Source: a virus
IMG/VR virus record: IMGVR_UViG_3300044977_000094
Span: 62,001 to 126,000 of that record
Strand: one strand, 5' to 3'
DNA: 64,000 nt
The translations under genes were made by a program, and so were the position numbers. Below the pieces are notes generated by a model. The model did not search any database, had not been told where the DNA came from, and was given only the letters and a program-made list of their open reading frames with translations. Positions 1,602 to 54,915 of this stretch are shown here, one piece after another; the first letter of the stretch is position 1, and each line of letters opens with the position of its first letter.

Positions 1602-4418
1602 CTATGAGAGTGCGGCCCAGAAGGCGTTGCTGGAGCCGGCGAGGGTGCCGTAGGTGCCGGGCATGGCGGTCGTCAGGCTGCCGGTGCTGGTGGCGTAGCG
1701 GCTGTTCGTGGCAGTCAGGCCGGTGTTGACGATGCTGAACCCGGAGACGGCCTTCGCGAAGGTCGGCAGCGTCGAGCCGTTCGCGAAGAAGGCGATGTAG
1801 TAGTCGCCTGCGGCGAGGTTGGTCTGCGTCGTGGTCAGCGCCATGACCTTGGTGCCGGTGCTGGTCCAGGCCGTGGACTGGTCTGCTGTGCCGGACAGCA
1901 GGGTGCCGCCGGAGGTGTAGAGCCCGGCGAAGCACTCGTTTGTGGTGAGGCTGACGCCGGTCACGGACTGGACGAACACGACGACGTTGGTGACGGTCGC
2001 CGCGGTGGGCAGGTGGACGCGGATCAGCTGGAGCTGGCCGGCGGTGGGGGCGGTGCCGGAGCTGTTGCAGGCGGTGGGCTTGTCGGACCAGGTCAGGTAG
2101 CCGTGGTCCGCGGGGGAGAAGTCGGCCCAGGGGTGGACATGGTCATAGGGGGCGGCGAGGGGCCCGGAGCCGGTGGCGGCGGGGGATGCGGGCCGCTTGG
2201 GCAGGTCGGTGGTGTCGATCGTGGCTTGGACTGTGCCGGTGGTGTTGGCCCAGCGGAGTACTTCGCCGACGGGCATGACGGGGATGCCGTGCGAGTTGAT
2301 CCCGGCCATGATCGACGCGAAGTCGGTGATGCTGATCTGAGTGTCGGCCGAGGGGGAGCTGACCACCTCATGGAACGCCAGGATGAGCCAACTGCCCGTG
2401 GCCTTGCACTGGTCGAGGTCGCCGCCGGTCTGGGTGATCAGGCTGGTCAGGTATTCCTGGCCGTCGCCGGTGTAGCTGGAGATGCTGGAGATCCTGCGCA
2501 CCCGCCACGCATCGGACGGGGGGTAGGTCTCCTTGGTCTTGTTGATCGTCGTCAGACCGAACCCGTACACCTGCTCCAGGATCAGCTCGGTGTTGACATT
2601 GTCCGTCGTCTGACCGTACTGCCCTTTCGGGTAGGCGACCAGGTCAGCGCCACGGAAGCCGTTCGCGACGGCGAACGCCTTCATGGAGGTGGCATCGGCC
2701 AGGAGCTGAGCGGCCGTGACGCCGGTGTACGTCTCACTGTGGACCGTGTCCGAGTAGGCGTGGCAGGCGATCTCCCAGCCGGAGTCCTTCTGGAGGTTCC
2801 GCAGGTCCGTCAGGGACAGGCGTCCGGTGGTGCCGATGAGGTCGGCGATCACGAAGCTGGTGGCGTTGTAGCCGTAGAGATCTAGGTATGGCTTGCCGGC
2901 GGTGAGGGCGTCTTCGTAGCAGTCGTCGAAGGTGATCGAGATGACGCCGTTCGGGAAGGTGGCCTGCCCGGACGCGACGAAGTCGACCATCTGGAGGTGC
3001 ACCGTGACCGCATTGGCGCTGCCGCCGCCGATGTCCGCGATCCGGAACCGCACCGCAGCCAGCCCAGTCGTGGCACCGCTGCCGATCTTCACGGCGGTGT
3101 GGAACGACAGGGACTGCGTAACCCAGTCGCCACTGGTGTAGTAGTTGGAGCCGGAGACTCCGGTCTGCATCGTCCAGTTCCACCCGTTGGTCCAGGTGGT
3201 GTCCGTGCACACGTCGATCTCGAAGGACGCCAGGTTGTTGATGTTCGTGACCTGCGCGGTCACCCGCGGGATCGCCGACGCCAGGCTGGCTGCGGTGATG
3301 CTGCCGTACACGTGGTAGGTGACCCCGTCGCCGGGAGTCGTCAGCGTTGCGCACTGGCTGCCCCGGGCGAAGACGCTGGTGTCGTTCGCGGTGTACGTGC
3401 CCGACCCGGAGACGTCCGAGACGAAGCCATGCCCGCTCTGGAACTCCGTGCCGATCGCCGTCGGCTGCACATACCGCGGCAGCCGCAGGGACGGCGGGTA
3501 CGGCACGCTGGTCGCCAGAGTCGCGATCGGCTGGTACAGCGACGCCGCTGACGCCTCGGCCGACGACAGGGCCGTCGCAGCCGCGCCCGCCGCGTCGTAG
3601 GCCGCGTTCGCTCGGCTGACCTCGGCGGTGATCTGCGTATTGGTGTAGGCCTCGGCGTTCGACTGCGCTGTCGCCGCTGCACCTGCGGCGTCGTAGGCGC
3701 TGTTCGCGCGGGACACCTCGGAGGCGATCTGCGCGGCCGTGTACGTCTCGGCGTTGCTCTGGGCGGTTGCGGCCGATCCGGCGGCGTCGAATGCGCTGCT
3801 GGCCTGAGTCGCCGCCGTACCTAGTCCGAGGTTGGTCCGGGCATTCGGCGCACTGGAGGCGCCGGTACCGCCCTGCGCCACCGGCAGCGGTGAGGCCAGG
3901 TGCGTGCCGGTGACCTGCGGGCCGGTTGCTGTGCCGCCGAGGTCCCCGTCGAGCTGGATGGCACCCTGGCTGCTGTTCGTCGCGGCGGGGATGGTGAAGC
4001 TGACGCTGCCGGTGAAGTCGTTGGTGCCCGTCCAGACGTTGTCGCCTGCGAGGGCCCCGAAGAGCGTGAGGTCGCCGGAGGGTGCGACGGGGCTGATGCT
4101 GGACAGGTCGACGGGGCTGTCGGCGCCGGGTAGCAGGATGCTGTAGGTGCGGCCGACCTGGGCGAGCTGGGTGCCGAGCTGTTCGACGACTTGGTAGGTC
4201 CAGCCGGTGGGGGAGACTCCGGCGGCGTCGGTCGCGAGGAGTTGGATGGTGAAGTCGCCGTTTCCGTCGAGCGTTGCCGTGACGGGGCCGCTCGGGATGA
4301 TGACGCTGTTGCTCGCGGACTGGAGTGTCACGCTGGGTGTGAAGGTGACGCTGCCGGTCTCGGGTTCCTCGTTGGCGGTCTCGTAGTGGCCGGTGAGGGT
4401 GACCATGGTCAGCGACAC
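1602..4418 (-). CDS. Tail fibre protein with embedded NodB polysaccharide deacetylase domain
   Basis: A protein of 938 residues from a GTG preceded by AAAGGAGGGG. The N-terminal ~105 residues form a beta-rich tail-attachment-like region. The tail-fibre signature LPVAQGGTGASS then NLGLG follows near residue 200. Next come Ala-rich repeats of the type AAGAAATAQSNAEAYT that look like a trimeric stalk, and a beta-sandwich-like region. A NodB domain spans about 490-720, with TFDDC near 496, CHAYSDTVH near 553 and YPKGQYG near 596, which are the metal/catalytic motifs of carbohydrate esterase family 4. A final ~170-residue beta-rich domain may bind the receptor. A role in deacetylating host wall glycan during adsorption is inferred. 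Confidence 0.85.
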   Translation of the reverse strand: MSLTMVTLTGHYETANEEPETGSVTFTPSVTLQSASNSVIIPSGPVTATLDGNGDFTIQLLATDAAGVSPTGWTYQVVEQLGTQLAQVGRTYSILLPGADSPVDLSSISPVAPSGDLTLFGALAGDNVWTGTNDFTGSVSFTIPAATNSSQGAIQLDGDLGGTATGPQVTGTHLASPLPVAQGGTGASSAPNARTNLGLGTAATQASSAFDAAGSAATAQSNAETYTAAQIASEVSRANSAYDAAGAAATAQSNAEAYTNTQITAEVSRANAAYDAAGAAATALSSAEASAASLYQPIATLATSVPYPPSLRLPRYVQPTAIGTEFQSGHGFVSDVSGSGTYTANDTSVFARGSQCATLTTPGDGVTYHVYGSITAASLASAIPRVTAQVTNINNLASFEIDVCTDTTWTNGWNWTMQTGVSGSNYYTSGDWVTQSLSFHTAVKIGSGATTGLAAVRFRIADIGGGSANAVTVHLQMVDFVASGQATFPNGVISITFDDCYEDALTAGKPYLDLYGYNATSFVIADLIGTTGRLSLTDLRNLQKDSGWEIACHAYSDTVHSETYTGVTAAQLLADATSMKAFAVANGFRGADLVAYPKGQYGQTTDNVNTELILEQVYGFGLTTINKTKETYPPSDAWRVRRISSISSYTGDGQEYLTSLITQTGGDLDQCKATGSWLILAFHEVVSSPSADTQISITDFASIMAGINSHGIPVMPVGEVLRWANTTGTVQATIDTTDLPKRPASPAATGSGPLAAPYDHVHPWADFSPADHGYLTWSDKPTACNSSGTAPTAGQLQLIRVHLPTAATVTNVVVFVQSVTGVSLTTNECFAGLYTSGGTLLSGTADQSTAWTSTGTKVMALTTTQTNLAAGDYYIAFFANGSTLPTFAKAVSGFSIVNTGLTATNSRYATSTGSLTTAMPGTYGTLAGSSNAFWAALS

Positions 4419-4456
4419 GGCGTCCCCTCCTTTGCGGCTGGAGGAGACGGGCTGGG

Positions 4457-4597
4457 CTACATCGGGTCGGGCAGGAACTCGGCGATCGGAGGATCCGCTG
4501 CGCAGGGTGCCGCGCGGTGGCGCCACCCCTTTTCGTCGAGCACTGCGGGCTGACCGCAGCGCGAGCAGCGTCCAGGCAGCGGCGGATCTTCGGTCAA
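4457..4597 (-). CDS. Small zinc-ribbon-like protein, TTG start
   Basis: A 46-residue protein whose TTG start overlaps the stop of the upstream gene (TTGA). It carries a C-x2-C pair (CSRCGQ) and a later H-x-x-x-x-C (HRAAPC), suggesting one bound zinc. Translational coupling to the preceding gene is likely. Function unknown. Confidence 0.5.
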   Translation of the reverse strand: MTEDPPLPGRCSRCGQPAVLDEKGWRHRAAPCAADPPIAEFLPDPM

Positions 4598-4845
4598 GCG
4601 GACGCCTCCACAGGGGAGGCCGTGTTCACGCGCTCGATGCTGAGGACCGCGCTGGCTTGGACGGCGTAGACGTCCTTGTTGTTCGGGTCCTTGAAGGTGA
4701 TGAAGGCGTCGTCGCGCTTGAAGTAGGCGGCATCGATCCGCTTGCTCCGCGTCCAGGACCCAGGGTCACCGACAAGGGGCAGCAGCATGACCTCGAACGT
4801 CTTGAGCGTAGGGATCTTTGTGGTGGTAGTGGCAGAGGCGGACAT
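4594..4845 (-). CDS. Small phage protein of unknown function
   Basis: An 83-residue protein starting MSASATTTTKIPTLKTFEVM. It is rich in beta-prone segments, with no cysteines and no membrane segment. It sits between the tail fibre and small zinc proteins in the same operon, so a virion or host-interaction role is possible but not shown. The downstream TTG gene overlaps its stop. Confidence 0.7.
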   Translation of the reverse strand: MSASATTTTKIPTLKTFEVMLLPLVGDPGSWTRSKRIDAAYFKRDDAFITFKDPNNKDVYAVQASAVLSIERVNTASPVEASA

Positions 4846-4875
4846 GGTGGCTCTCCTGGTGGTTGTGGTGGTGGT

Positions 4876-5040
4876 TCAGTGCCTGGCGACTTCGCGGCCG
4901 TCGGCCACGTCGTCTCGCCCGGTCCCGCCGCAGTCGCATCGGTCGCCCCAGCCGTCGCGTACTCGGCAGCGGGTAGTGGGCCGGTGGGCGTGGCCGCAGT
5001 TCTCGCAGTACGCGGACGCGTCCGTGACGGGGATCCTCAC
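4876..5040 (-). CDS. Small DnaJ-type zinc-ribbon protein
   Basis: A 54-residue protein from GTG (the GTG at 5043 is an alternative), with AAGGTGAG upstream. It has the pattern YCENCGHAH...CRV...CDCGGTG, four to five cysteines arranged like a zinc ribbon ending in a DnaJ-like CGGTG. Probably a small metal-binding accessory protein. No specific partner is visible. Confidence 0.55.
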   Translation of the reverse strand: MRIPVTDASAYCENCGHAHRPTTRCRVRDGWGDRCDCGGTGRDDVADGREVARH

Positions 5041-5061
5041 CACCTCACCTTGATCCGTGGC

Positions 5062-5409
5062 TTATTCCCCGACGGTCTGCCAGTCATCGGCGAGGAGGTC
5101 CGACTGCGATGCGACCCACGGGACGAAGTCGCCCTGGGCGGTCAGCATCATCAGGTACGGCCGGAACTTCCGGACGGTTCCCTCGGGGATGCCGGTGGCC
5201 TGGGCGGTGTTGGCGTTGATCGCAATGCCGTCCGGGTAGCCGGGCTGGTGCACGACGAACATGCCGTGCCCGTTCCAGCCGGCGCGGGTGACCCGGGAGC
5301 CGCTCTTGAGTGCGGTGAGCGCGGCGCCGAAGTCCATTGCCGCGGGCGCATGGGGCTGCGGCGCGGGTTCGACGTGGGGGCGGGGGCGGGAGTGCGCGTG
5401 GTGGGACAC
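5062..5409 (-). CDS. DUF2829/Tad2-type protein, candidate anti-Thoeris factor
   Basis: A 115-residue protein. Residues 25-115 match the DUF2829 pattern: MDFGAALTALKSGSRVTRAGWNG at the start, then MFVV and PYLMMLTAQGDFVPW, ending with ASQSDLLADDW. The family includes Tad2 proteins, which bind the cyclic-ADPR-like signal made by Thoeris defence. The GTG start is preferred because GGAG precedes it. It adds a His/Pro-rich 24-residue leader not needed for the domain; the internal ATG at 5337 has no clear RBS. DUF2829 members are not all tested inhibitors, so the anti-defence role is inferred. Gene order places it after a hairpin at 5446-5486. Confidence 0.75.
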   Translation of the reverse strand: MSHHAHSRPRPHVEPAPQPHAPAAMDFGAALTALKSGSRVTRAGWNGHGMFVVHQPGYPDGIAINANTAQATGIPEGTVRKFRPYLMMLTAQGDFVPWVASQSDLLADDWQTVGE

Positions 5410-5445
5410 GAGGGCTCCATCGTGAGGGTGGGTGATGTCGATTGG

Positions 5446-5486
5446 TCTCGCGGCCCCGGCCGGGTGGGCAGGCGGGGGCCGCGAGA
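5446..5486 (-). terminator. Stable GC hairpin upstream of the Tad2-like gene
   Basis: A perfect 12-bp inverted repeat (TCTCGCGGCCCC and GGGGCCGCGAGA) with a 17-base loop. It lies between the HTH gene and the Tad2-like gene. No T-run follows, so it may attenuate or protect RNA rather than terminate it. Confidence 0.4.
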
Positions 5487-5558
5487 TGCCCGCGACCCTC
5501 GACACGGGCGCGGGTACCCCGCCGTGGTCCGCACCCAGGACAGCGGGGAGAAGAGGGG

Positions 5559-5774
5559 TCAGGCGGCGAGCACGGCGGACTCGGCCCGCTTGGCAATCTC
5601 GGCCCTGACCTCGGGCTCGGCGTAGAGCGTCCCCTCGCTGCGCCGGCGACCGGGGAATCGCTGGATCTTGCCGCGTGTCGCCCACTGGCGGATCGCTGCC
5701 TCGCTCACACCCGCGAGGGCCGCCGCCTCGGCTCCGGTGATCAGCTCGTCCGGGTACACATTCAAGGGAATCAC
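5559..5774 (-). CDS. Excisionase/MerR-like helix-turn-helix protein
   Basis: A 71-residue protein. The GTG at 5774 is chosen because GGGGGTGG lies just upstream and the coding begins right after a terminator. The core LITGAEAAALAGVSEAAIRQ followed by WATRGKIQRFPG is the winged-helix HTH typical of small excisionase/MerR-type DNA binders. Possibly a local regulator. Its targets are unknown. Confidence 0.6.
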   Translation of the reverse strand: MIPLNVYPDELITGAEAAALAGVSEAAIRQWATRGKIQRFPGRRRSEGTLYAEPEVRAEIAKRAESAVLAA

Positions 5775-5794
5775 GCGATCCACCCCCGAACGCG

Positions 5795-5826
5795 AAAAAG
5801 CCCCCGCCGTGGTGACGGCGGGGGCT
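5795..5826 (-). terminator. Rho-independent terminator
   Basis: On the minus strand, AGCCCCCGCCG pairs with CGGCGGGGGCT around a 6-base loop and is followed by TTTTT. It ends the transcript of the gene at 5891-6559. Confidence 0.8.
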
Positions 5827-6677: not shown

Positions 6678-8264
6678 TCAGCCCCGCTTCTCCCACGGCC
6701 ACGACGCATTGCGCCCGGCCTCCAGCAACGGCACCATGCGGAACGCGTGGTCGGTCAGGCCGCCGAAGGTGTGCCGGTTCCGGCTGCCGGACGGACCGTG
6801 GCCGACCCGGTAGCCAGCCAGGTTCCAGGTGTACACCGGCACGTTCGCTGGAACCGCGGTGTCCACCGTGTGCCCGGTGCGCGAGTACGCGGTCTGCTCG
6901 TCGGTCACCACGACGACGCGGTCGTGGCCGCGGTAGTTGTCGGCGATGGCCCGTGGGGTGTCCGTGCCATCGTCCATCCGGAACCGGCCCATCACGGTCA
7001 GGATCGCGTCGCCGCGCTGGAACTGCACCGGGTAGTGGCTCATGCCGTAGCCGACGAGGTCGGCCGACTCGGCGCGCAGTGCGAGCGCGGCCCCGAACAG
7101 CGCAGCCTTCTCCGCGAGGGCGATGTCGCTGTCGGTGCGGGTCGAGTAGACGTAGCCGGGGAACATCGACGGCGACTGGTCAATGCACACCAGTGTGCGG
7201 CCGGTCAGTGACGGCACGTTGGCCAGGGAGGATCGCAGACTCTTCTCCAGGGCGTGACCCCAGCGCAGGCTGGCCGTGTTCTTGTGCGCGGAGTAGAACC
7301 GGAACGGGAACTGCCGAGAGCGGGCGACCTCGGTCGGGTTGGCCAGCTTGGCGGCGACCTGCTCGGCAACCTCGTCGGACACTCCAGCCTGGTCGAAGTT
7401 CCGCAGGTTCCGCAGCAGCGCCATGTAGCCCATGGACGGGATCACCGCTTCCCAGGCCGCGGCGTCCATGGGGCCCTGGAGCCAGCCGGCCAGTGCCTCC
7501 CAGGTCATGCCCGCGTGCTGGAGCAGGTCCGGGTGCTCGCGCACTACCGTGCGGCGCTGGTCGACGGGGGTGGCCATGAGCTGTTCGCGGGCGACGATGG
7601 TGGACAGGCTGCCGGGCACGTCGGTGTCGCGTCCGTGTCGGCGGTCGATGGCGTGCTTGAACAGGTCGCCCTGCCAGCGCCGGCCGGTGGCGGGTGCGGC
7701 GTGGACGAGTTCGAGGACGTCACCGAAGCGGTAGCCCTTGGAGTCGGTGTCGTACTTGAGCAGCGCTCGCTCGCTGTAGAGGCGCTGGACGGCGTCGGCG
7801 ATTCCGCGCTTGACGGGCTTGGACAGGTTGCGGCCGTAGCGGCTGGTCCAGTAGGCGAGGAGTTCACCGGGCTCGTCGGGGCGCTGGAGAACGGAGTCGA
7901 TGACCTGGCGGGACTGGCCGTCGAGCTTGGCGTCGAGTCGGGCCTTGGCGAACTCGGCCGCGCCGACGAGGGATGCGGTGCGCATGTTGCCGTCGTCGCG
8001 CAGCCAGCCGAGGAGCCCGGCGGTCCACTCCGGGGCGGAGACGGCGAGCTCTCGGATGAGCTGGGTGTAGCGGTCGTCGCGCTGGCCGCCGGATTCGTAG
8101 AAGGTGTCCTGGCCGACGAGGTTGGAGACGGCGAGGAGGAACAGCTCGCTCTTCTCGTCGCGGAGGTAACCGGTCGCGCCCTCGAAGGTGCGCGTGGCGA
8201 CCCCGGTCGTGGTGACGGGGGACGTGCCGGCCGGGCGGACGTGGGGGGTGTTGAAGCGTGACAT
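6678..8264 (-). CDS. rsr: Ro60/TROVE-domain protein (Rsr), Y-RNA binding
   Basis: A 528-residue Ro60 orthologue. Residues ~20-330 form the helical TROVE ring that binds Y RNA and misfolded RNA, with GATGYLRDEKSELFLLAV at the start. Residues ~355-520 form a von Willebrand A fold with a MIDAS motif DQSPS near 363. In bacteria Rsr works with Y RNAs and often with PNPase in RNA quality control. The start is the ATG just past the hairpin at 8266-8289. The GAGGGG of that hairpin is also the only plausible RBS, so folding could limit translation. Three Y-RNA-like sequences sit immediately upstream on the same strand. Confidence 0.92.
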   Translation of the reverse strand: MSRFNTPHVRPAGTSPVTTTGVATRTFEGATGYLRDEKSELFLLAVSNLVGQDTFYESGGQRDDRYTQLIRELAVSAPEWTAGLLGWLRDDGNMRTASLVGAAEFAKARLDAKLDGQSRQVIDSVLQRPDEPGELLAYWTSRYGRNLSKPVKRGIADAVQRLYSERALLKYDTDSKGYRFGDVLELVHAAPATGRRWQGDLFKHAIDRRHGRDTDVPGSLSTIVAREQLMATPVDQRRTVVREHPDLLQHAGMTWEALAGWLQGPMDAAAWEAVIPSMGYMALLRNLRNFDQAGVSDEVAEQVAAKLANPTEVARSRQFPFRFYSAHKNTASLRWGHALEKSLRSSLANVPSLTGRTLVCIDQSPSMFPGYVYSTRTDSDIALAEKAALFGAALALRAESADLVGYGMSHYPVQFQRGDAILTVMGRFRMDDGTDTPRAIADNYRGHDRVVVVTDEQTAYSRTGHTVDTAVPANVPVYTWNLAGYRVGHGPSGSRNRHTFGGLTDHAFRMVPLLEAGRNASWPWEKRG

Positions 8265-8265
8265 G

Positions 8266-8289
8266 AAAAAGCCCCTCGCTGTGGAGGGG
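8266..8289 (-). terminator. Terminator/attenuator hairpin overlapping the rsr ribosome site
   Basis: On the minus strand CCCCTC, a 6-base loop, GAGGGG, C and TTTTT, one base before the rsr ATG. It could end the Y-RNA transcript, and it hides the GAGGGG ribosome site of rsr, coupling RNA and protein levels. Confidence 0.7.
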
Positions 8290-8455
8290 AGGAGATGCAA
8301 TGGGGTGCCCGAGATCGGAGTCGGCGACGGCGTGATTGTCAATTGCGCTACCCATTGCGCCACCGGCAACCGTGAGGTGGCCGGGCGGGACTTGAACCCG
8401 CAACCCATTGAAGTATCCGTTGCCTTCGCACCGGGCACCCCGATGCATATCCTCC
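8288..8455 (-). ncRNA. Y RNA with tRNA-like module (YrlA type), copy nearest rsr
   Basis: The ends pair over about 24 positions (8455-8432 with 8288-8311, three mismatches). Inside is the Ro-binding pattern: 5' GTGCGAA facing an 11-base 3' loop GACTCCGATCT, closed by GGCAACGG paired with CCGTCGCC. The apical part is a permuted tRNA: T-arm GCGGG-TTCAAGT-CCCGC (8385-8401), then an acceptor-like stem closed by a short loop, then D-arm GCGC-AATGGGTA-GCGC (8345-8360). Ends by base pairing are approximate. Confidence 0.85.
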
Positions 8456-16671: not shown

Positions 16672-17556
16672 TCAGCTCAGCTGGGGCAGGTCGGTGCGGT
16701 CGAGGATCTCGGTGCGGATGTTCTTCGCGGTCGACTCGGAGGGGGAGCCGAGCTTGGCTTTGCTGATCGCGGCGGCGAACTCCGACGCGGTGGGCTGCCG
16801 GCGCAGGCGCGCGAACTCCGCGTGGAAGACCGGGGCGGCCACCTCAACCCACTCGTCCATGGACCGGCGGGTGGACTTGCCGGGCTTCTTGGCGGCAGGA
16901 CGCGGGGCTCGCTGGCGGGATGCTGGCGGCAGCTGGCGGTCGTCGCTGTCGACAGGATCGGGGGTTTTCTGGCGCTTGGTCAGGTCGACCTTGTCGCCAA
17001 CTGGCGGGGGCGAGCTGTCGACAGAAGTACCGCCAATTGGCGCTGGGCTGCCGACAGGATCGGGGATCGTCTTGGCGGCAGGAACTGCGTCTTCTGGCGC
17101 CAGGGGGGCGGTCGCGTTGGCGCCAGGAGCGGTGCGCTGGAGGGCGTTGTGGAACTGGCGCATGAGGGTGCCGAACGCCAGAAGCGCCGCGACGGGCGGG
17201 ACCGCGGCGACGACGTAGGTCATGATCGAGGCGTCCGAACCGACGCCGGCGACGTTCAGGGCGATGGAGCCGCCGGAGCCGATGACGGTGAGGCCGATGG
17301 CGGCGGCGTCGACGCGGCGGCTGAGGGAGGCGATGAGGAGCAGGATCTCGCCGATGACGATGAACAGGTCGACGGTGGCGGGCCATGCCCAGGCGCGGAC
17401 GCCGCCGAGGCCGTTGTTGTGGGCGACGGTGTGGAGGTGGGCGTAGGAGAGCCAGAAGGCTGCGGCGGTGAGGATGATTGTGCAGGCGACTGCGGCGACC
17501 GCGAGCCGGCGCAGCGTGGTGGCGGTGGCCACTGGCGGTTCGTCGGTCTCGGGCAC
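16672..17556 (-). CDS. DUF2637-type membrane protein with C-terminal helical domain
   Basis: A 294-residue protein. Residues ~15-140 hold four membrane helices with the DUF2637 core (AWAWPATVDLFIVIGEILLL). The linker ~165-230 is low complexity. The C-terminus (HAEFARLRRQPTASEFAAAI...) resembles a DNA-binding helical domain. DUF2637 proteins are found beside TraB/Spd genes on Streptomyces conjugative elements. The linker DNA carries the dense TGGCG motif set listed separately. Confidence 0.75.
   Translation of the reverse strand: MPETDEPPVATATTLRRLAVAAVACTIILTAAAFWLSYAHLHTVAHNNGLGGVRAWAWPATVDLFIVIGEILLLIASLSRRVDAAAIGLTVIGSGGSIALNVAGVGSDASIMTYVVAAVPPVAALLAFGTLMRQFHNALQRTAPGANATAPLAPEDAVPAAKTIPDPVGSPAPIGGTSVDSSPPPVGDKVDLTKRQKTPDPVDSDDRQLPPASRQRAPRPAAKKPGKSTRRSMDEWVEVAAPVFHAEFARLRRQPTASEFAAAISKAKLGSPSESTAKNIRTEILDRTDLPQLS
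16889..17160 (+). repeat. Cluster of about 11 (C/T)TGGCG motifs, one strand
   Basis: The six-base motif occurs about 11 times in 270 bases on the plus strand inside the DUF2637 gene linker. Two CTG(T/C)CGACAGGATCGGGG direct repeats (about 16945 and 17048) and two TGTCGACA palindromes are interspersed. It could be codon bias in a low-complexity linker or a cis-acting site. Confidence 0.35.
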
Positions 17557-20495: not shown

Positions 20496-21254
20496 ATGGA
20501 CACCCCCGCCTACCAGCACATCGCAGACCACTTGCGCACCGCCATCGAACGCGGCGACTACCACCCCGGCGACACCCTTCCGAAACTCACCGACCTCATG
20601 GCCCAGTACACGGTGTCCAAATCCACCGCCGCCGAAGCCATCGCCCTACTCGAAGCCGAAGGCCTCGTCGAAGCCGTCCGCCGCCGCGGCACCGTCGTCC
20701 GCGCCCTGCCGGTCCGCCGGCGCCTGACCCGCGCCAGACAGGTCTACCGGGACGACCGCGGCTACTACTTCGACCCCACCGCCCAACCCTGGACCGCCCT
20801 CGAACGACCGATCGTCACCTGGGGCCGGGCACCCGCGGACGTCGCCGGCCTGCTCGGCGTCGACCCCGGCGAGGACGTCCTGGTCCGCGACCGCATCATG
20901 GGCGACCCCGACACCCGCAAGCCCATGCAGCTCGCCACCAGCTACCTCCCCGCCGCTGTCGCCCGCGGCACCCGGCTCGCGGAGGTCGACACCGGGCCGG
21001 GCGGGATCTACGACCTGCTGGAGGGCATGGGGCACCGGCCGCTGCTGTGGTCGGAGAGCGTCAGCGCCCGCATGCCGACACCAGTCGAGGCCGCGCGCCT
21101 GGGTTTGGTGAAGGGTGTGCCGCTGCTACGGATCGCCCGCACCGCCACCGGGGCCGGCGGGACCGTGGTGGAGGTCAACGACACGCGCATGTCCGCCGAG
21201 GAGTTCGAGATCGGGTACTCCATCCGGCGGCACCCCTCGGCCGAGCTGGGCTGA
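20496..21254 (+). CDS. GntR-family regulator with UTRA domain, KorSA-like
   Basis: A 252-residue protein; ATG with AAGGAGG seven bases before it. Residues ~1-70 are the GntR winged helix (HIADHLRTAIERGDYHPGDT then SKSTAAEAIALLEAEGLVEA). The rest matches the UTRA effector domain pattern, including GVPLLRIARTATG near the end. KorSA of pSAM2, a transfer-control repressor, belongs to the same class. It may recognise the CCTAGG palindromes in the neighbouring intergenic regions. Confidence 0.75.
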   Translation: MDTPAYQHIADHLRTAIERGDYHPGDTLPKLTDLMAQYTVSKSTAAEAIALLEAEGLVEAVRRRGTVVRALPVRRRLTRARQVYRDDRGYYFDPTAQPWTALERPIVTWGRAPADVAGLLGVDPGEDVLVRDRIMGDPDTRKPMQLATSYLPAAVARGTRLAEVDTGPGGIYDLLEGMGHRPLLWSESVSARMPTPVEAARLGLVKGVPLLRIARTATGAGGTVVEVNDTRMSAEEFEIGYSIRRHPSAELG

Positions 21255-22049: not shown

Positions 22050-22592
22050 CTACTCGGCGTCGGGGTCCGTGAGCGGCCGCCGGTGCCGATGCTTGGCCAG
22101 CCTGTCCAGTACGCCCTCGGCGGTAGCGGTGGCCTTCGCTTCGGCCCGGGCGGTCATCCGGAATTCCCGCCGTCCTGCCGGCTTGGAGCGGGATTGCCAG
22201 GCGTTCCAGTACTCGCCGTCGTCGTCCTCGGGCAGGCGAAGCGGTGCTTTGCCCTCGGCCCAGTCCCAGACCACGGCTGCCATGTCCTCGTAGTCGTCGA
22301 GCAGGACCAGCGGGCCCACGCTGACCGGTTCCAGCAGGAGGGCTGATGGTGGGACGTCGAAGGCGACGGCCAAGGCCATGAGGTCGTCGGTGTCGACTCG
22401 GCGCGATCCGTTCTCGATCTTGGTGATGGCGGAGGCGGCGATAGGTCGGCCCAGGTCGGCCAGGATGCCGGCCAGCCTGTAGGTGGACAGGCCGAGGGCC
22501 GTGCGGAGGCGTCCGACGTTTCGTGCCACTGCCTGCCCCGTCGGGCCCAGCTCGTTGGGCTTACGCCGCGTCTTCTTCTCGTCCGCCTCCAT
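22050..22592 (-). CDS. XRE-family transcription regulator
   Basis: A 180-residue protein with an N-terminal helix-turn-helix (residues ~20-80, STYRLAGILADLGRPIAASA then KIENGSRRVD). The C-terminal half has an acidic stretch WDWAEGKAPLRLPEDDD. Similar in layout to the protein at 43350-43934. Divergent from the excisionase-like gene at 22696. Confidence 0.75.
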   Translation of the reverse strand: MEADEKKTRRKPNELGPTGQAVARNVGRLRTALGLSTYRLAGILADLGRPIAASAITKIENGSRRVDTDDLMALAVAFDVPPSALLLEPVSVGPLVLLDDYEDMAAVVWDWAEGKAPLRLPEDDDGEYWNAWQSRSKPAGRREFRMTARAEAKATATAEGVLDRLAKHRHRRPLTDPDAE

Positions 22593-22639
22593 GGCAGCAG
22601 CCTCTCACGCGATCTACCGGTTCAACCAACGACATGGAG

Positions 22640-22668
22640 CGATGTAGCCGTATATACTTCTAACATCG
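22640..22668. promoter_or_regulatory. Divergent promoter with CGATGT/ACATCG inverted repeat
   Basis: CGATGT and its complement ACATCG flank 17 bases holding TATACTT, a -10-like sequence for the plus gene at 22696. A bound XRE or HTH protein would cover the promoter. Confidence 0.45.
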
Positions 22669-22695
22669 AAGCACGCGAGTGATAGAAGGAAGCAA

Positions 22696-22923
22696 ATGCT
22701 CGTAGAAGAAATGCAGCTGGTCGGAGACCCTGAAGACCTACTCACACCCCGCGAGGTCTCGGCGATCACCCGGCTCAAACTCCAGACCCTCGCCGACCAC
22801 CGCTGGAGGAAGGTCGGCATCCCCTACATCAAGCTCGGCAAAGGGCCCCGCGGCCACGTCCGCTACCGCCGACGCGACGTCATGGCCTACCTGACAGACC
22901 CACTGGCGCAGGGCGCCGGCTAG
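22696..22923 (+). CDS. Excisionase-like helix-turn-helix protein
   Basis: A 75-residue winged-helix HTH (LLTPREVSAITRLKLQTLAD, then the wing GRGHVRYRRRDV-type). ATG has GAAGGAAG upstream. Excisionase/AlpA-type. It directly precedes the replication genes, as in pSAM2-like elements, and may regulate them. Confidence 0.65.
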   Translation: MLVEEMQLVGDPEDLLTPREVSAITRLKLQTLADHRWRKVGIPYIKLGKGPRGHVRYRRRDVMAYLTDPLAQGAG

Positions 22924-22971
22924 GACGCACCGCACAGTCATTCCCTGTCGCGACGTCCGAGAGAGAAGCAC

Positions 22972-23877
22972 GTGAGCCTCGAAGCGATGGACTGGGTGTG
23001 GGATCACTCCCGCTCCAAAGGCGTCGGCCGCATGGTGATGCTGGCCCTCGCCGACAAGGCGCTGCCCTCGGACACGGAGTGCAAGGCGTACGGCTCGCTG
23101 ACCTTCCTCCAGAAGCGCGCCAACTGCACCCGAGAGGCGGTAACCGCCGCACTGTCGGTCTTGCTGGCGTTGGGCGAACTGGAGGTCGTCGAAGGCGAAA
23201 AGGGCCCGTACGGGGCCAGCGTGTACCGACTCCCTAAGGCCATTGGCCATGCCCGTCTCAGGTCGTTCGAACGCTCCAATCGGTCGGCTCACCCGACCGA
23301 TTCAAGTTCGACAAGCGGTCGGCTCAGCCGACCAGGGGTAGTCGGCTCACCCGACCAATCCGGAGCGGAATCGGTCGGCTCACCCGACCCCAACACCACC
23401 ACCCCACCAAGAACCACCACCTCCGCGCCTACCGACCCGCCTGCCCCACCCTCTCCATCCGGAGGAGGCGGAGGAGATCAACAACAGGAAGCCGAGGGCT
23501 TCCTCCAGTCGCTGCCCCCGCCGTGGACGGCAGGACCTGTGGACGCCCGCAAGCTCGCCCCACTGCTCCTGGAGCGCACCGAAGCGCAAGGCTGGGACCT
23601 CGACCCCGCCCTCGCCGCCGAGCTGACGAAGAACCCCGGTGGCATCGAGCGCTACGCCTCGGTCCTGCCGCGGCGAATCGCCAACCTCGTCAAGAAACCC
23701 ACCGGCCACAAACCCACCGGCCACCAGTCCCGCGCTTCGCCCGCCCTGCCGCCGTGGTGCGAGGACCCCGACTGCGACCGGGCCACCCGCTACCGAACCA
23801 CCGAAGACGACAACGGCTACCCCCTCGCCACGCCCTGCCGCGCCTGCCACCCCGACCACGCCAAGGAAGCAGCATGA
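22972..23877 (+). CDS. HTH replication initiator-like protein with iterons inside the gene
   Basis: A 301-residue protein from GTG (AGAGAGAAG upstream). Residues ~1-90 form a winged helix (DWVWDHSRSKGVGRMVMLAL onward, then REAVTAALSVLLALGEL). A low-complexity linker about 100-170 is encoded by the four repeats listed separately. C-terminal residues ~180-301 include a likely helicase-loading region and a zinc cluster (CEDPDCDRATR, CRACHPD). The stop overlaps the DnaB gene. Organisation is like lambda O: initiator gene containing the origin, followed by the helicase. Confidence 0.7.
   Translation: MSLEAMDWVWDHSRSKGVGRMVMLALADKALPSDTECKAYGSLTFLQKRANCTREAVTAALSVLLALGELEVVEGEKGPYGASVYRLPKAIGHARLRSFERSNRSAHPTDSSSTSGRLSRPGVVGSPDQSGAESVGSPDPNTTTPPRTTTSAPTDPPAPPSPSGGGGGDQQQEAEGFLQSLPPPWTAGPVDARKLAPLLLERTEAQGWDLDPALAAELTKNPGGIERYASVLPRRIANLVKKPTGHKPTGHQSRASPALPPWCEDPDCDRATRYRTTEDDNGYPLATPCRACHPDHAKEAA
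23282..23389 (+). repeat. Four iterons, GGTCGGCTCACCCGACC, candidate origin
   Basis: Copies at 23282-23298, 23317-23333, 23340-23356 and 23373-23389. The second has a single C-to-G change and the third lacks the leading G. Each copy is an inverted repeat around CTCAC. Starts are 35, 23 and 33 bases apart. The first copy extends to a 10-bp perfect inverted repeat at 23278-23302. Initiator and helicase genes flank them. Confidence 0.8.
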
Positions 23878-25214
23878 CCACCGGCCCCGACGACTACCCC
23901 GACGAGGACCCGCGCCCCCGCGACATCCCCGCCGAGCAAGCCCTCCTCGGCAGCATGCTCCTCGGCGAACGCGCCATCGACGACGCCGCCGACACCCTCG
24001 CCGGCCCCGACGACTACTACCGCGAAGCCCACCAGCTCATCCACACCGCGATCCTCGAAGTCCACGGCCAAGCCGGAGCCCGAGCCGACCCCATCACCGT
24101 CGAGGCCCAGCTCCGCAAAAGCGGGGTCCTGGAGCGCTGCGGCGGCGCACCGTACCTGTTCCGCCTCGCCAACAGCGTCCCCGTCAGCGCGAACGCCGAC
24201 TGGTACGCCGGCATCGTCCGCGACACCGCCAAGCTCCGCCGGATCTACGAGGCCGCCACCCGCATCGCCAACCAGGCCCTGGCCCGCGAAGACCCCGACG
24301 ACGTCCTCGACGCCGCCGTATCCGCCTTCCAGGCACTGATCATCAACGCCCCTGCTGACGCGCCCAAGCTGTCCGTCGCCGACCGCTGGGACGACTTCGT
24401 CGACCAGCTCGAAGCCGGAGAAGACCCCAACGCCCTCGACACCCCCTGGAAAGACGTCAACGAGGTCACCAGCTTCAAGCCCGGCGACGTCATCGCCGTC
24501 GGCGCGGAGACCTCCGGCGGAAAGTCCCTCCTCGGCTTCAACTGCGCCGCGCACGTCGCCCTGCGCCGCAAGCGGCCCGTCCTGGTCGCGAGCATGGAGA
24601 TGGGAGGCACCGAGCTCCTCGCCCGCCTCACCGCGGCCGAAGCCGGCGTGGACCTGTCGCGGCTGGTGAACCGGCAGCTCCTCGAATCCGACTGGGAGCG
24701 CATTGCCCGTGTCGCCGAGCGCCTGCGCGGTGCCGACAACTTCGTCCTGGACGACTCGCCCGGCCTGTCCCTGTCGAAGATCCGCGCCCGGATCAGGTGG
24801 ATGACGTCCAAGGGCACACCCCCGGCGCTGGTCGTCGCGGACTACCTCCAGCTCATCACCCCCGAAGGCCCCGGCGGCCGGAACCGCACACAGGAAGTCG
24901 CGGACATCTCCCGCGGGTTGAAGCTCATGGCCATGGAGTTCAAGGTGCCCGTCCTGGCCCTGGCCCAGTTCAACCGCGGGCAGGTCGGGCGCAAGCCGCT
25001 GGTGTCGGACTTCAAGGACTCCTCGCAGATCGAGCAGGACTCGAACGTGATCCTGCTGATCTCCAAGGACATCCCCGACGACCCGTCGAACCCGGCGCCG
25101 GACAACGGGATCAGGCACGTTGAGGTGGCGAAGAACCGGAACGGGCCGCGGGGTCGCGAGGTGGACCTTCAGCAGCAGGGGCACTATGCGCGGCTGGTGT
25201 CGCTCGCCCGGTAG
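23874..25214 (+). CDS. dnaB: DnaB-type replicative helicase
   Basis: A 446-residue helicase; the ATG overlaps the initiator stop (ATGA). N-terminal DnaB domain (residues ~15-130, AEQALLGSMLLGERAIDDAA). RecA-like domain has Walker A GAETSGGKS near 212 and Walker B-like VVADYLQLIT near 325, then LAQFNRGQ. The P-loop ETSGGKS differs from the usual GMGKT, as in phage and plasmid relatives. C-terminus carries FKDSSQIEQDSNVI and the arginine-finger region. Confidence 0.9.
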   Translation: MTTGPDDYPDEDPRPRDIPAEQALLGSMLLGERAIDDAADTLAGPDDYYREAHQLIHTAILEVHGQAGARADPITVEAQLRKSGVLERCGGAPYLFRLANSVPVSANADWYAGIVRDTAKLRRIYEAATRIANQALAREDPDDVLDAAVSAFQALIINAPADAPKLSVADRWDDFVDQLEAGEDPNALDTPWKDVNEVTSFKPGDVIAVGAETSGGKSLLGFNCAAHVALRRKRPVLVASMEMGGTELLARLTAAEAGVDLSRLVNRQLLESDWERIARVAERLRGADNFVLDDSPGLSLSKIRARIRWMTSKGTPPALVVADYLQLITPEGPGGRNRTQEVADISRGLKLMAMEFKVPVLALAQFNRGQVGRKPLVSDFKDSSQIEQDSNVILLISKDIPDDPSNPAPDNGIRHVEVAKNRNGPRGREVDLQQQGHYARLVSLAR

Positions 25215-44756: not shown

Positions 44757-45424
44757 GAGCCGGCCTCGTCCCGCGTGGGCGGCACGAACGGCTCGGTGGG
44801 TGCCGGGATGGCGCGGGCCGTGGCTGCTCGGCGCTGCTCGGCTTCGTGCCGGGCCTGCTCGGGCGACATGCGGGGCTCGACCCCGGGGAGTCCGGCTGCC
44901 TCGGAACGTGCCGGGTGCGGCGGTCGGCGTGCGCCCTTGGGGGTGCGGCAGTCGCGTCCGACGAGGGCCTTGCAGGTGGGGCATTCGACGGAGCGGGCTC
45001 CGGGTCGGTGGTCGGGTCCGTCGCTTAGGACGGGCCGGCCGATCTCCGCAAGCCGTACCTCGACGCTGCGGTGTGGTCCGCCGGTGAGCATCGGCGTGCC
45101 GGCGGATGCGGCGTGGCCTGCGGCGACGGCGCGGAGCTGGCCGCGGAGCCGGGTGAGGTACTGGTCCACGGTCTCGTCGCCGCAGGGCTCGTACTGGAAT
45201 CCGTCGAGCCGGGCGGTGCGGGCCTTGCGGACCTCGGTGATGATCTCGGCGGGTGCGATGAACGGCTGGCGGGCGGCGAGTTCGGCGCAGGCGGTGCGGC
45301 AGGCGTCCAGGTCGTAGTTGGCGAGCAGGTCGTGCCAGGCGTCCGGGGTGTACTCGTCGATCTTCTGGTGGGGGCACAGGGCCCGGACGTAGCGAACCAG
45401 GAGCACGGCGTCGGCGGGGGTCAC
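44753..45424 (-). CDS. Helicase-loader/replisome-organizer-like protein with zinc motif
   Basis: A 223-residue protein from GTG overlapping the upstream stop. The N-terminal part (LVRYVRALCPHQKIDEYTPD then AWHDLLANYDLDACRTAC) resembles the loading proteins next to phage replication initiators. C-terminal VECPTCKALVGRDCRTPKG is the phage zinc-binding motif. It directly follows the replication initiator gene, so it may load the helicase; not proven. Confidence 0.5.
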   Translation of the reverse strand: MTPADAVLLVRYVRALCPHQKIDEYTPDAWHDLLANYDLDACRTACAELAARQPFIAPAEIITEVRKARTARLDGFQYEPCGDETVDQYLTRLRGQLRAVAAGHAASAGTPMLTGGPHRSVEVRLAEIGRPVLSDGPDHRPGARSVECPTCKALVGRDCRTPKGARRPPHPARSEAAGLPGVEPRMSPEQARHEAEQRRAATARAIPAPTEPFVPPTRDEAGS

Positions 45425-46542
45425 TGGTTCTCCTGCTGCATGCGGGCGTTGGCGCGGGCCATGGCGCGGTCGAACAGGTCGTCGGTCTGCTGCTGCGGGT
45501 TTGGTCGGGCCTGGCGCTGCTGGCGCAGGGCGGCGAGGCGCAGCTGGTCGTACTTCTGGCGCAGCTTGGGGGTGCTGAGGATGTTGGCCTGCCAGAACTC
45601 GTCGTTCTGGCACCAGTCGACGGCGGCGAGGACTTGGTCGAGGGTGCGGCCGTCGAGGTCGATCATTCGGCGGGCGGCGTCGCGCCAGCGCTGGGTGATG
45701 TTGGGGCGCTTGGATCCGTTGGCTTCGATGCGGTTGGCGAGGGCGAGGCAGATCAGTTCGACGTCTTCGCGGGCGGGTTCGACAACGCCCTCCTCTTCGA
45801 CCGCTTCGAGGGCACCTTCGGGGTCGTCGTCGGCCGGCTCGGCTGCCGACGCTTTTTCCTCCTGCTCCCTTGCTCCCTGCTCCCTGCTCCCTGCTCCCTG
45901 CTCAGGAGTGAGACCCTCGTGAGACTCTCCGGAGACCCTCATGAGGTCCTCATGAATCTCGACGTCAAGGGGGTGGCCTGCGGTGATGCCATGGACATTG
46001 CCATTCGGCCGGAGCTTGTCGCTCAGGTGGAGCAGTTGGCCTTCGACAACCCCCTCCCCCCTTGAAATCAACCCTCCAGGGGTTGTTCCGGAGGTGCCGG
46101 AAACAGGCGGAGAGACCCTCATGAGACCCTCATGAGACTTTCGTGAGCGCGTGAATTCGCGAGGCGGATTCGCTCCGCGCCACATGGTGAAGGCGTCGTG
46201 CTCGTCGTCCGGACAGGGCGGGATCCGGGACTTCCCCGGATGCTGCGGCCGCTGGTGCTCGGCCCAGTTCGGGCAGTGCAGATAGGTGCGGCCGTCGACC
46301 ACGTACCGGCATACCGGGCCGGCCTCGGCGATGACCTCCAGCCAGTCGTCGATGACCTCGGCCGTAATGTCGCGGTCGCGGGGGAAGCAGTCAGCGGCGA
46401 TGAGCATTCCGTCGTCCACGCCGCGGCCGTGGTCATCGAGATACCCCCAGAGAAGGATGAAGAACAGCCGCACCTCGCGCGGCCACAGCGACACGGTGAT
46501 GGAGGTGCGCAGCTCCGGCTTGATGGAACGGATACGGGCCAT
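45421..46542 (-). CDS. Phage replication protein with internal 11-bp iterons
   Basis: A 373-residue protein. The start MARIRSIKPELRTSITVSLW and LFFILLWGYLDDHGRGVDDG match phage replication proteins with an N-terminal winged helix. The middle (residues ~140-240) is low complexity, encoded by 11-bp and 7-bp tandem repeats. C-terminal region (NITQRWRDAARRMIDLDGRT and WCQNDEFWQANILS) is a DnaD-like/partner-binding domain. Second replication initiator of the element. Confidence 0.75.
   Translation of the reverse strand: MARIRSIKPELRTSITVSLWPREVRLFFILLWGYLDDHGRGVDDGMLIAADCFPRDRDITAEVIDDWLEVIAEAGPVCRYVVDGRTYLHCPNWAEHQRPQHPGKSRIPPCPDDEHDAFTMWRGANPPREFTRSRKSHEGLMRVSPPVSGTSGTTPGGLISRGEGVVEGQLLHLSDKLRPNGNVHGITAGHPLDVEIHEDLMRVSGESHEGLTPEQGAGSREQGAREQEEKASAAEPADDDPEGALEAVEEEGVVEPAREDVELICLALANRIEANGSKRPNITQRWRDAARRMIDLDGRTLDQVLAAVDWCQNDEFWQANILSTPKLRQKYDQLRLAALRQQRQARPNPQQQTDDLFDRAMARANARMQQENQ
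45864..45899 (-). repeat. Five tandem GCTCCCT 7-bp repeats
   Basis: Copies at 45864, 45872 (after one extra T), 45879, 45886 and 45893, inside the replication gene (encoding EQGAGSREQGAREQ). Change in copy number would shift the reading frame. Confidence 0.75.
45910..45953 (+). repeat. Four tandem 11-bp iterons GAGACCCTCAT, cluster 1
   Basis: GAGACCCTCGT, GAGACTCTCCG, GAGACCCTCAT and GAGGTCCTCAT in exact 11-base steps inside the replication gene; the period is not a multiple of three, which favours a DNA signal over coding. Confidence 0.7.
46112..46144 (+). repeat. Three tandem 11-bp iterons GAGACCCTCAT, cluster 2
   Basis: GAGACCCTCAT, GAGACCCTCAT and GAGACTTTCGT follow each other without gaps, 158 bases from cluster 1. 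Likely binding sites for the encoded initiator. Confidence 0.75.
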
Positions 46543-53125: not shown

Positions 53126-53815
53126 CTAGAACGGGGGCTCGTCCGAGATTTCGGGCCAGCGCTGCGACGGCCGCTTACGGGCCCGCTGGCCCATGTCCGA
53201 GAGTTCGAGGGCGTAGTCGACGGCGTCGTCGATGTTCAGTCCCGCGTCGTCCAGGCGGGACGCGAGCGCGTTCGCAGCCGCCCACCGGTCGTCCGAGCGG
53301 CCCTGCAACTCCTCCGCCACGTGCCGGACCAGCAAGTCGCGGTACGCCTCGGACAGCTTCCGGAACGCTGCCTGGTCCAGCCCGACCGTGACCGGCTTGG
53401 CCGCGGGCTCGTCGTCGGCCGGCACGGGCGGTGCCGCGTCCGCGTCGTAGCTGCGGTTGAAATCCTCCATGCGGTTCTCGATCGCCGCGTCCACGCTGAC
53501 GTGGCGCGACCGCAGCGCGTAGGCCAGCCCGTGGGCCAGCTCCTGCGCGGCGGGCTTCCCGTCGATCAACGTCTCGGCGATCACAGCGCCGACGATCCGT
53601 TGCGTGGCCGCCAAGTCCCGCTGGAGCTCACGAAGCTGCTCCTGCGCGTGGGCCTGCTGCTCCGGCAACTGAGCCAGCGTCGCGTGAGCGCCAGCCAAAG
53701 CCGCCAAGATCGCCGCCGACTCGGGATTGACGAACACCGCCTCCGGGCCCGTACCGCGCAACCAGGACGCCTGCGACAGGTACTTCTCCGCCGACGCGAA
53801 GTGGTTGACTGTCAT
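53126..53815 (-). CDS. Unknown helical protein
   Basis: A 229-residue protein, MTVNHFASAEKYLSQASWLR. Predominantly helical with an acidic spacer; the tail ends RWPEISDEPPF. It precedes the RDF-like gene in the operon. Possibly a recombination accessory protein. Confidence 0.5.
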   Translation of the reverse strand: MTVNHFASAEKYLSQASWLRGTGPEAVFVNPESAAILAALAGAHATLAQLPEQQAHAQEQLRELQRDLAATQRIVGAVIAETLIDGKPAAQELAHGLAYALRSRHVSVDAAIENRMEDFNRSYDADAAPPVPADDEPAAKPVTVGLDQAAFRKLSEAYRDLLVRHVAEELQGRSDDRWAAANALASRLDDAGLNIDDAVDYALELSDMGQRARKRPSQRWPEISDEPPF

Positions 53816-54915
53816 GCCGTCGCCCCCTCGACCATGAAGTCGACGAACGCGGCCAACTGCTGCTCGCTGGCGTCCTGAATGCGGTCACCCTGGGACCAGA
53901 TCCCGAACTGCGACTCGGTCGCTTCCCCGTCCCAGCCGCGCAGGCTGCGGGCCTCGTTGAGCCGCGTCCGCAGGCCATCCGGGTCGTCCGGATCCACGAA
54001 CTCGGCCTCCAGCGGCTCATCGGACGCAGCCTCCTCGTCCTTGAGGCTGGCGATCCGCATCAGCTCCTGAGACAGCGGATCCTTGCCGTCCGCCCGCACG
54101 TGACCCACCTGGCGGGCCTGCGTCCACACATCCCGCACGTCGTCCGACGTCAGGGCGCCCTTGGCCAGCGCGACGTAGTCCGGCTTCGGGGGCTCGATCG
54201 CCAGCGCCTCGACGGCACCACCCGGGTTCAACGCCACAGCGGTCGGCAGCGGCCCGGCCAGCGCCTGCCGCGGCGTGACACCACGCAGCTCGACCACCAC
54301 CACGGGAAACTTCTTCGTCTCCCCATTCGCGACCCGCTGACGCGGCTCGATCCGCAGCGTCACCGGCACGAAGCCCTTGCCGTCGGTCCCGGCGAGGACC
54401 ATGTCGACCATGCCGCCCCACTCGCTGGCGGCGTAGAAGCTGTGCGTCTCCGCACGCCACATGCCCATCCCCGACAGGTCGGGCAGCATCACGTTCAGGC
54501 GCGACGTCGCGGCACAGACGCGGCCCTTCGGCTGCTCGTACCAGGTCTCCCCGAACTTGGCGGCGCACAGGCACGGCTGGCGGGACAGCAGCTCGGTCTC
54601 GCCGTCGCAGCGGCGCTGGCAGCCACCCTTGGACCACATCTCGTTGTACTGGTTCAGCGGATCACCGGGCGTGATCAGCGCCTCGATCGACGCCGCCTTC
54701 GTGATCACCCGCCACTGCTCGATGGAGGAGTTCAGCGGCGACCACTGCTCGACGTTGCCGCCCCACAGCTCGGCGGCCGTGCGCACGTGCTCCTCCGAGT
54801 GGGAGGTGACCACCCATGTCGCCGACCGCACAGGACGGTTGCCCTGCGTGTAGCCGGTGCGAAGGCGACCGTGCTCGGCGGCCTTCCGCTGGATGTTCAG
54901 GAGCCGGGAGCCCAT
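53812..54915 (-). CDS. phiC31 gp3-like protein, candidate recombination directionality factor
   Basis: A 367-residue protein. The start MGSRLLNIQRKAAEHGRLRT, then SHSEEHVRTAAELWGGNVE and CQRRCDGETELLSRQPCLC resemble the phiC31/phiBT1 gp3-type family, which switches serine integrases to excision. The serine integrase is at 58607-60076. Assignment rests on partial family recall, not on a search. The C-terminal acidic region is extra compared with gp3. Confidence 0.5.
   Translation of the reverse strand: MGSRLLNIQRKAAEHGRLRTGYTQGNRPVRSATWVVTSHSEEHVRTAAELWGGNVEQWSPLNSSIEQWRVITKAASIEALITPGDPLNQYNEMWSKGGCQRRCDGETELLSRQPCLCAAKFGETWYEQPKGRVCAATSRLNVMLPDLSGMGMWRAETHSFYAASEWGGMVDMVLAGTDGKGFVPVTLRIEPRQRVANGETKKFPVVVVELRGVTPRQALAGPLPTAVALNPGGAVEALAIEPPKPDYVALAKGALTSDDVRDVWTQARQVGHVRADGKDPLSQELMRIASLKDEEAASDEPLEAEFVDPDDPDGLRTRLNEARSLRGWDGEATESQFGIWSQGDRIQDASEQQLAAFVDFMVEGATA

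What the first reader, a model, noticed from the sequence alone, without database searches (positions are those of the whole stretch)
23278..23389. Four iterons inside an initiator gene, lambda O-like origin
GGTCGGCTCACCCGACC (one copy perfectly symmetric with 10-bp arms) recurs at spacings of 35, 23 and 33 bases, in the linker-coding part of the initiator gene just before a DnaB-type helicase. The linker residues are low complexity, so the DNA repeats appear to drive the protein sequence there.
Basis: partly seen in the sequence, partly recalled or inferred. Interest (0 to 1): 0.7.

Follow-up and report, generated by a model that had tools for sequence, protein, structure and literature searches.

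The report
Replication origin inside initiator gene
Four palindromic DNA repeats sit inside a Streptomyces-type phage gene for a replication-starting protein, next to its helicase gene, and almost certainly mark where copying of the phage DNA begins; this is the lambda/P22 arrangement, and relatives show that each such protein carries its own matching repeats.

Summary
Four 17-bp palindromes (GGTCGGCTCACCCGACC and variants) lie at 23282-23389, spaced 35, 23 and 33 bp, in the linker-coding part of an intact initiator gene (22972-23877). That gene overlaps a DnaB helicase gene (23874-25214) by an ATGA. The copies are read in three reading frames. No more than two copies appeared in any of 500 synonymous recodings or 500 codon shuffles, so the repeats are a DNA feature.

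The same layout recurs in about 25 related initiator loci from viral contigs, Streptomyces plasmids and genomes, with different palindromes. Palindrome sequence tracks the initiator's N-terminal winged-helix domain (partial Mantel r 0.65) and not its C-terminal domain (0.01). A G-depleted tract abuts the 3' side of the repeats. It is the longest in the 64 kb, is conserved at silent sites, and sits where lambda and P22 have their unwinding tract.

Best reading: a lambda/P22-like, rep1/rep2-like in-gene replication origin. The initiator's N-domain binds the palindromes, the adjacent tract melts, and the phage's own DnaB is loaded. Binding and origin activity are inferred, not shown. It is a new member of a known kind; the family-wide repeat/N-domain pairing and the G-depleted tract are the more interesting by-products.

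The parts
22629..22658 (+). promoter-like sequence upstream of the operon (AT-rich patch 22640-22710)
   Evidence: consensus scan (1 found, 0.1 expected); softest stretch of 22600-24000; not tested
22696..22923 (+). small HTH_17 (excisionase/MerR-like) protein, first gene of the probable operon
   Evidence: PF12728 3.1e-07; an equivalent small HTH gene precedes the initiator in L007 by direct reading and in plasmids L010, L060, L069 by annotation
22972..23877 (+). replication initiator, 301 aa: winged-helix N-domain (about 1-95), disordered linker (109-167), C-domain with CxxxxC...CxxCH motif (170-301)
   Evidence: PHROG 6643/391/8540 initiation families; AlphaFold model with linker pLDDT <50; ORF
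23282..23298 (+). iteron 1 GGTCGGCTCACCCGACC (10-bp arms when extended outward)
23317..23333 (+). iteron 2 GGTCGGCTCAGCCGACC (8/8 pairs)
23340..23356 (+). iteron 3 AGTCGGCTCACCCGACC
23373..23389 (+). iteron 4 GGTCGGCTCACCCGACC
23387..23424 (+). G-depleted tract (38 nt with one G on the + strand), probable unwinding / helicase-entry tract
   Evidence: longest such run in the window; same position in DnaB-paired relatives; silent-site conservation 0.87 and 0.93
23874..25214 (+). DnaB-type replicative helicase, overlaps the initiator stop by ATGA
   Evidence: PF03796 1.2e-56, PF00772 1.7e-24, phrog_19 3.3e-95

Best explanation
This is the replication origin of a Streptomyces-type phage or phage-like element, placed inside the gene of its own initiator, as in lambda O and P22 gene 18. 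Proposed steps: (1) the winged-helix N-domain of the 22972-23877 protein binds each of the four 17-bp palindromes, probably as a dimer [inferred from symmetry and covariation]; (2) the assembled complex opens the adjacent G-depleted tract at 23387-23424 [inferred from position and conservation]; (3) the C-domain hands over the DnaB helicase encoded next door, giving theta replication [inferred from gene order, translational overlap and the P22 precedent]. The linker peptide mainly tolerates whatever the origin DNA encodes [supported by mixed frames and silent-site conservation].
For: In-gene repeats are far beyond chance and frame-independent. The N-domain models as a confident winged helix (pLDDT mostly 85-98) with a disordered linker exactly where the iterons lie. 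Foldseek's weak top hits (E about 0.01-0.06) include 4pql, 4pt7 and 5kbj, which the library titles as DNA-binding protein N-terminal domain, initiator and Rep-DNA complex. The same layout with different palindromes occurs in about 25 initiator loci. Iteron similarity follows the N-domain (Mantel r 0.70; partial given C-domain 0.65, p 0.0002) but not the C-domain (partial 0.008, p 0.44), including natural chimaeras such as L031 against L019/L020. Palindrome arms change together (GGTCGG..CCGACC to GCTCGG..CCGAGC in L007). The G-depleted tract abuts the iterons at rank 1-9 of about 4,000-5,800 runs in all 20 DnaB-paired loci tested, with synonymous avoidance of G (combined p 1.6e-8, loci treated as independent). 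Lambda O and P22 gp18 behave the same way in the same scripts. Published: Streptomyces linear plasmids replicate from a helicase (rep2) plus iteron (rep1) unit (PMC13152386); lambdoid iterons are 19-bp imperfect inverted repeats mid-O-gene beside an AT-rich tract (PMC7466680).
Against: No binding, melting or replication assay exists for this element. Profile comparison with lambda O and P22 gp18 was not significant. The window's tract is G-poor but only modestly soft (30-bp stretch softer than 92% of the region; the 60-bp stretch is average), unlike lambda's AT-rich tract. The Mantel test ignores phylogeny, and N-domain and iterons are physically linked. In relatives L051-L055, L057 and L058, which lack DnaB directly downstream, iterons occur without a G-depleted tract at that place.
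Confidence: 0.88

Rival explanations
1. The palindromes are operator sites: the initiator (or the neighbouring HTH proteins) binds them only to repress transcription of its own operon.
For: Palindromes suit dimeric repressors; HTH genes lie at 22050-22592 and 22696-22923.
Against: They lie 300-420 nt inside the coding region and not at the promoter-like site 22629-22658. They come as 3-8 copies in the same linker in all families, beside a conserved G-poor tract, exactly as in lambda and P22 origins. Autoregulation could be an additional role.
Confidence: 0.05
2. The repeats are a partition (centromere-like) site or incompatibility determinant and the origin is elsewhere.
For: Iteron arrays serve as centromeres in some plasmids; plasmid relatives carry ParA/KorB near the locus.
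Against: No ParA (PF13614) was found anywhere in the 175-kb record or in the related viral records searched, while the arrays are present in nearly all of them.
Confidence: 0.03
3. The palindromes act as hairpins in single-stranded DNA or mRNA (initiation structure, attenuation) and not as duplex protein sites.
For: Arms covary so that pairing is kept, and some relatives have 13-bp perfect arms (L019). RepA of Streptomyces plasmid pWTY27 may recognise a stem-loop (PMC3583192).
Against: Covariation of arms is equally expected for a dimer site. Sequence within an element is uniform across copies and follows the N-domain, which a pure hairpin would not need.
Confidence: 0.04

Closest known systems
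Phage P22 gene 18 / gene 12 origin
   Same: Initiator gene with four in-gene repeats in mixed frames, a rank-1 G-depleted tract 3' of them, and a DnaB-type helicase gene overlapping the initiator stop by four bases.
   Different: No detectable sequence relation of the initiators; P22's tract is AT-rich, the window's is C/A-rich; iteron sequence and spacing differ.
Phage lambda O / ori-lambda
   Same: Four imperfectly palindromic iterons in the middle of the initiator gene, dimeric initiator, unwinding tract on the 3' side (PMC7466680).
   Different: Lambda has a helicase loader (P), not its own DnaB; its tract is A-rich; no significant protein match.
Streptomyces linear-plasmid rep1/rep2 replicons (pSLA2, SCP1, pSLA2-L type)
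   Same: Iteron-bearing rep1 plus helicase rep2 as a central bidirectional origin (PMC13152386). The window's C-domain and helicase match Streptomyces and Kitasatospora plasmid proteins (up to 45% over the C-domain, up to 57% for the helicase) with the same gene order and in-gene repeats.
   Different: The window element lies in a record with phage terminases; the named prototype plasmids were not in the collections, so direct comparison was not possible.
Staphylococcal RepA_N plasmids (pSK41, pPR9)
   Same: Four Rep boxes centrally within rep, winged-HTH N-domain binds them, the origin DNA encodes a dispensable linker, and a natural N-domain-plus-origin swap exists in pPR9 (PMC5703833). Foldseek lists 4pql, 4pt7 and 5kbj among its weak top hits; that they are RepA_N structures is from my own knowledge.
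   Different: The C-domain contacts host DnaG primase in pSK41; here a private DnaB is encoded next door. No sequence match.

Membership tests
lambda/P22-type origin (as an architecture) | multiple initiator-binding repeats inside the initiator coding sequence | tested here: met
   repeats present and non-random; binding itself not testable
lambda/P22-type origin (as an architecture) | unwinding tract immediately 3' of the iterons | tested here: inconclusive
   strand-asymmetric G-depleted tract at the right place, conserved, but not AT-rich; melting untested
lambda/P22-type origin (as an architecture) | helicase or helicase loader encoded next to the initiator | tested here: met
   DnaB-type helicase with ATGA overlap; P22 has the same overlap
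lambda O protein family | sequence homology to lambda O / P22 gp18 | tested here: inconclusive
   hhalign not significant; shared phrog_391 hit uses different halves of the proteins
Streptomyces linear-plasmid rep1/rep2 replicon | iteron-bearing rep1 gene followed by DnaB-like rep2, homologous proteins on plasmids | tested here: met
   homology strongest in C-domain and helicase; prototype records not available
Streptomyces linear-plasmid rep1/rep2 replicon | functions as bidirectional origin of a linear molecule | not testable with these tools
   needs replication mapping
RepA_N plasmids | RepA_N domain (PF06970) in the initiator | tested here: not met
   no Pfam hit in the window protein at E 0.1 and no RepA_N among relatives

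The most novel reading that the evidence does not exclude
Streptomyces phages and plasmids carry a large set of interchangeable origin cassettes (N-domain plus matching in-gene palindromes) plugged onto a shared C-domain/DnaB, with a readable recognition code, and in these high-GC genomes a G-depleted and not an AT-rich tract serves as the helicase entry site.
Probability: 0.4. Interest if true: 0.6.

Novelty: new member of a known kind. Interest (0 to 1): 0.42.

Why it matters
It assigns a replication origin in an uncharacterised actinobacterial virus from sequence alone. It also gives a testable set of roughly ten iteron sequences paired with their N-domains, which is useful for predicting incompatibility and for building compatible Streptomyces vectors. 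The conserved G-depleted tract raises a concrete question: how in-gene origins open in 70% GC genomes without an AT-rich element.

Tried and rejected
GC skew as an origin marker: rejected, since its sign change follows gene orientation. AT-rich DUE: the 60-bp stretch after the iterons is only average in the window, while AT content after the iterons is modestly raised across the family (0.37 against 0.32, p 0.001, where the window's own last iteron was mis-set, corrected). Direct tblastn of the initiator in phage records: no match. Pfam: no domain in the window initiator. Fetching pSLA2-L and SCP1: records absent. My searches of the open-access library did not return the original pSLA2 and pFP1 papers. 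L013 and L015 gave no significant in-gene repeats with my scan. For L028 and L029 the scanned ORF was the wrong one: repeats lie further upstream, in a separate gene before an ATPase-like gene. The automatic scan missed the tandem 11-bp repeats of the second initiator and gave no clear result for pFP3, L070, L071, L072 and L063. VIA-align rows have Z below 9 for a common winged-helix fold and say nothing about family.

Full report
What is there. Four 17-bp palindromes lie at 23282, 23317, 23340 and 23373 (spacings 35, 23, 33) in the ORF 22972-23877. Copy 1 has perfect 10-bp arms and copy 2 pairs at all eight positions around one base. The ORF matches PHROG replication-initiation and O-like families, and the gene that follows, overlapping it by ATGA, is a DnaB helicase. 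The window is part of a 175-kb IMG/VR virus record.

Is it chance or protein? No. Recoding the ORF 500 times with its own synonymous codons, or shuffling its codons 500 times, never gave more than two copies of any 15-mer with one mismatch, against four observed. The copies are read in frames 1, 0, 2 and 2 and encode different peptides (RSAHPT, GRLSRP, VGSPDQ, VGSPDP), so selection is on the DNA. Against the nearest relative (L006) third codon positions are 55% identical in the N-domain but 86% in the repeat region. In L007 the second copy occupies a different frame than in the window.

Relatives. The initiator has close relatives in viral contigs and in a Streptacidiphilus carbonis contig, and its C-domain and helicase have homologs on Streptomyces and Kitasatospora plasmids. 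A helicase-profile scan returned 38 loci. In nearly all loci whose helicase is about 53-81% identical, the upstream gene carries 3-8 palindromic repeats in the same linker, but with different sequences: GCTCGGCTCAGCCGAGC in L007; AGAGGGTCAGANTCTGACCCTCT in L019; GCGCCCCGGANTCCGGGGCGC in L020; GGTTCGAANTTCGAACC in L032; CTAGGTCGCCNGGCGACCTAG and close variants in L016, L025, L030 and L031; and a GGAAG...CTTCC type in L014, L017 and L026. Loci L051-L059 share the N-domain type, and most (not L056) have no DnaB directly downstream; L052, L053 and L055 show GGTCCGGANTCCGGACC and L057-L059 show GGGCCGG-type sites.

Which part of the protein goes with the repeats? Over 28 loci, repeat similarity correlates with N-domain similarity (r 0.70; 0.65 after removing the C-domain; permutation p 0.0002) and not with C-domain similarity once the N-domain is accounted for (0.008, p 0.44). 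Natural chimaeras show it directly: L031 and L019/L020 share a C-domain but have unrelated N-domains and unrelated palindromes. Caveats: permutation ignores shared ancestry, and N-domain and repeats are neighbours. However, the C-domain is a neighbour on the other side and does not follow the repeats. The N-domain models as a confident winged helix and the repeat-coding linker as disorder. Foldseek's weak top hits include structures titled initiator and Rep-DNA complex; fold similarity at Z below 9 is not evidence of family.

A second element: the G-depleted tract. Directly 3' of the last repeat, 23387-23424 holds one G in 38 nt, the longest such run in the 64-kb window. In all 20 DnaB-paired relatives tested the equivalent run abuts the repeats and ranks 1-9 among about 4,000-5,800 runs (rank 1 in thirteen). 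The encoded residues differ between types (TTTPPRTTTSAP, RVFPSTTPSSP, HHQNHNNNPST), and synonymous choice avoids G (combined p 1.6e-8 treating loci as independent). Third positions of this tract are 87% and 93% identical to L006 and L007, the highest in the gene. It is not AT-rich, so calling it the unwinding tract is an inference from position.

Yardsticks. The same scripts on lambda O find its four annotated iterons in frames 0, 2, 2 and 1 and a C-poor A-rich run 3' of them. On P22 gene 18 they find four repeats and, immediately 3', the rank-1 G-poor run, followed by a DnaB-type helicase gene overlapping by four bases; the P22 repeats alone were not significant against recoding in that test (6/30). 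The window therefore reproduces the P22 layout.

How it most likely works. Initiator N-domain dimers occupy the four palindromes, the complex opens the G-poor tract, the C-domain brings the neighbouring DnaB, and theta replication starts. Shown: the anatomy, the DNA-level constraint, and the N-domain/repeat pairing. Inferred: binding, melting, helicase delivery, origin activity.

Compared with what is known. In-gene origins are established for lambdoid phages (PMC7466680), RepA_N plasmids, where the N-domain binds four boxes inside rep and an N-domain-plus-origin swap occurs naturally in pPR9 (PMC5703833), and Streptomyces linear plasmids, described as a helicase rep2 with iteron rep1 (PMC13152386). 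The finding is therefore a new member of a known kind. What I did not find described in the papers read is the wide set of interchangeable cassettes in actinobacterial phages and the conserved G-depleted tract; absence from an open-access library is not proof of novelty.

Verdict. Interest is moderate.

Noticed in passing
window 45421-46542 (-): A second, unrelated initiator gene (phrog_2149; DnaD-like C-terminal match) also carries in-gene repeats: 11-bp tandem ATGAGGGTCTC units in two clusters (45910-45956 and 46101-46147), followed on the coding strand by a pyrimidine-poor tract GCAGGGAGCAGGGAGCAGGGAGCA. Two different in-gene origins in one window.
   Followed up: partly
G000:C1:61738-63321 and 155671-157341 (outside or at the edge of the window): Two terminase large subunit matches in the 175-kb record, plus a serine integrase (58607-60076) and Gp3-like RDF (53812-54915) in the window's right part: the record may hold two phage genomes side by side.
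   Followed up: partly
window 11669-13933 (-), 16672-17556 (-), 20496-21254 (+): FtsK/SpoIIIE-type translocase, DUF2637 and GntR regulator genes, typical of Streptomyces conjugative plasmids, sit beside the phage-like replication genes: plasmid/phage mosaic.
   Followed up: no
window 6678-8438 (-): TROVE-domain (Ro60-like RNA-binding) protein, PF05731 1.2e-17 and phrog_850; no Y RNA was looked for.
   Followed up: no
window 1602-4526 (-): Tail-fibre-like protein with an internal polysaccharide deacetylase domain (PF01522 4.4e-12).
   Followed up: no
L052-L059, gene directly downstream of the initiator: Initiators with the same N-domain type are followed by an uncharacterised gene (IDxHIAALLAYAGRLDSRVRR...) in place of DnaB (not in L056, which has DnaB); most of these loci lack the G-depleted tract. 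It might be a helicase loader that recruits host DnaB.
   Followed up: no
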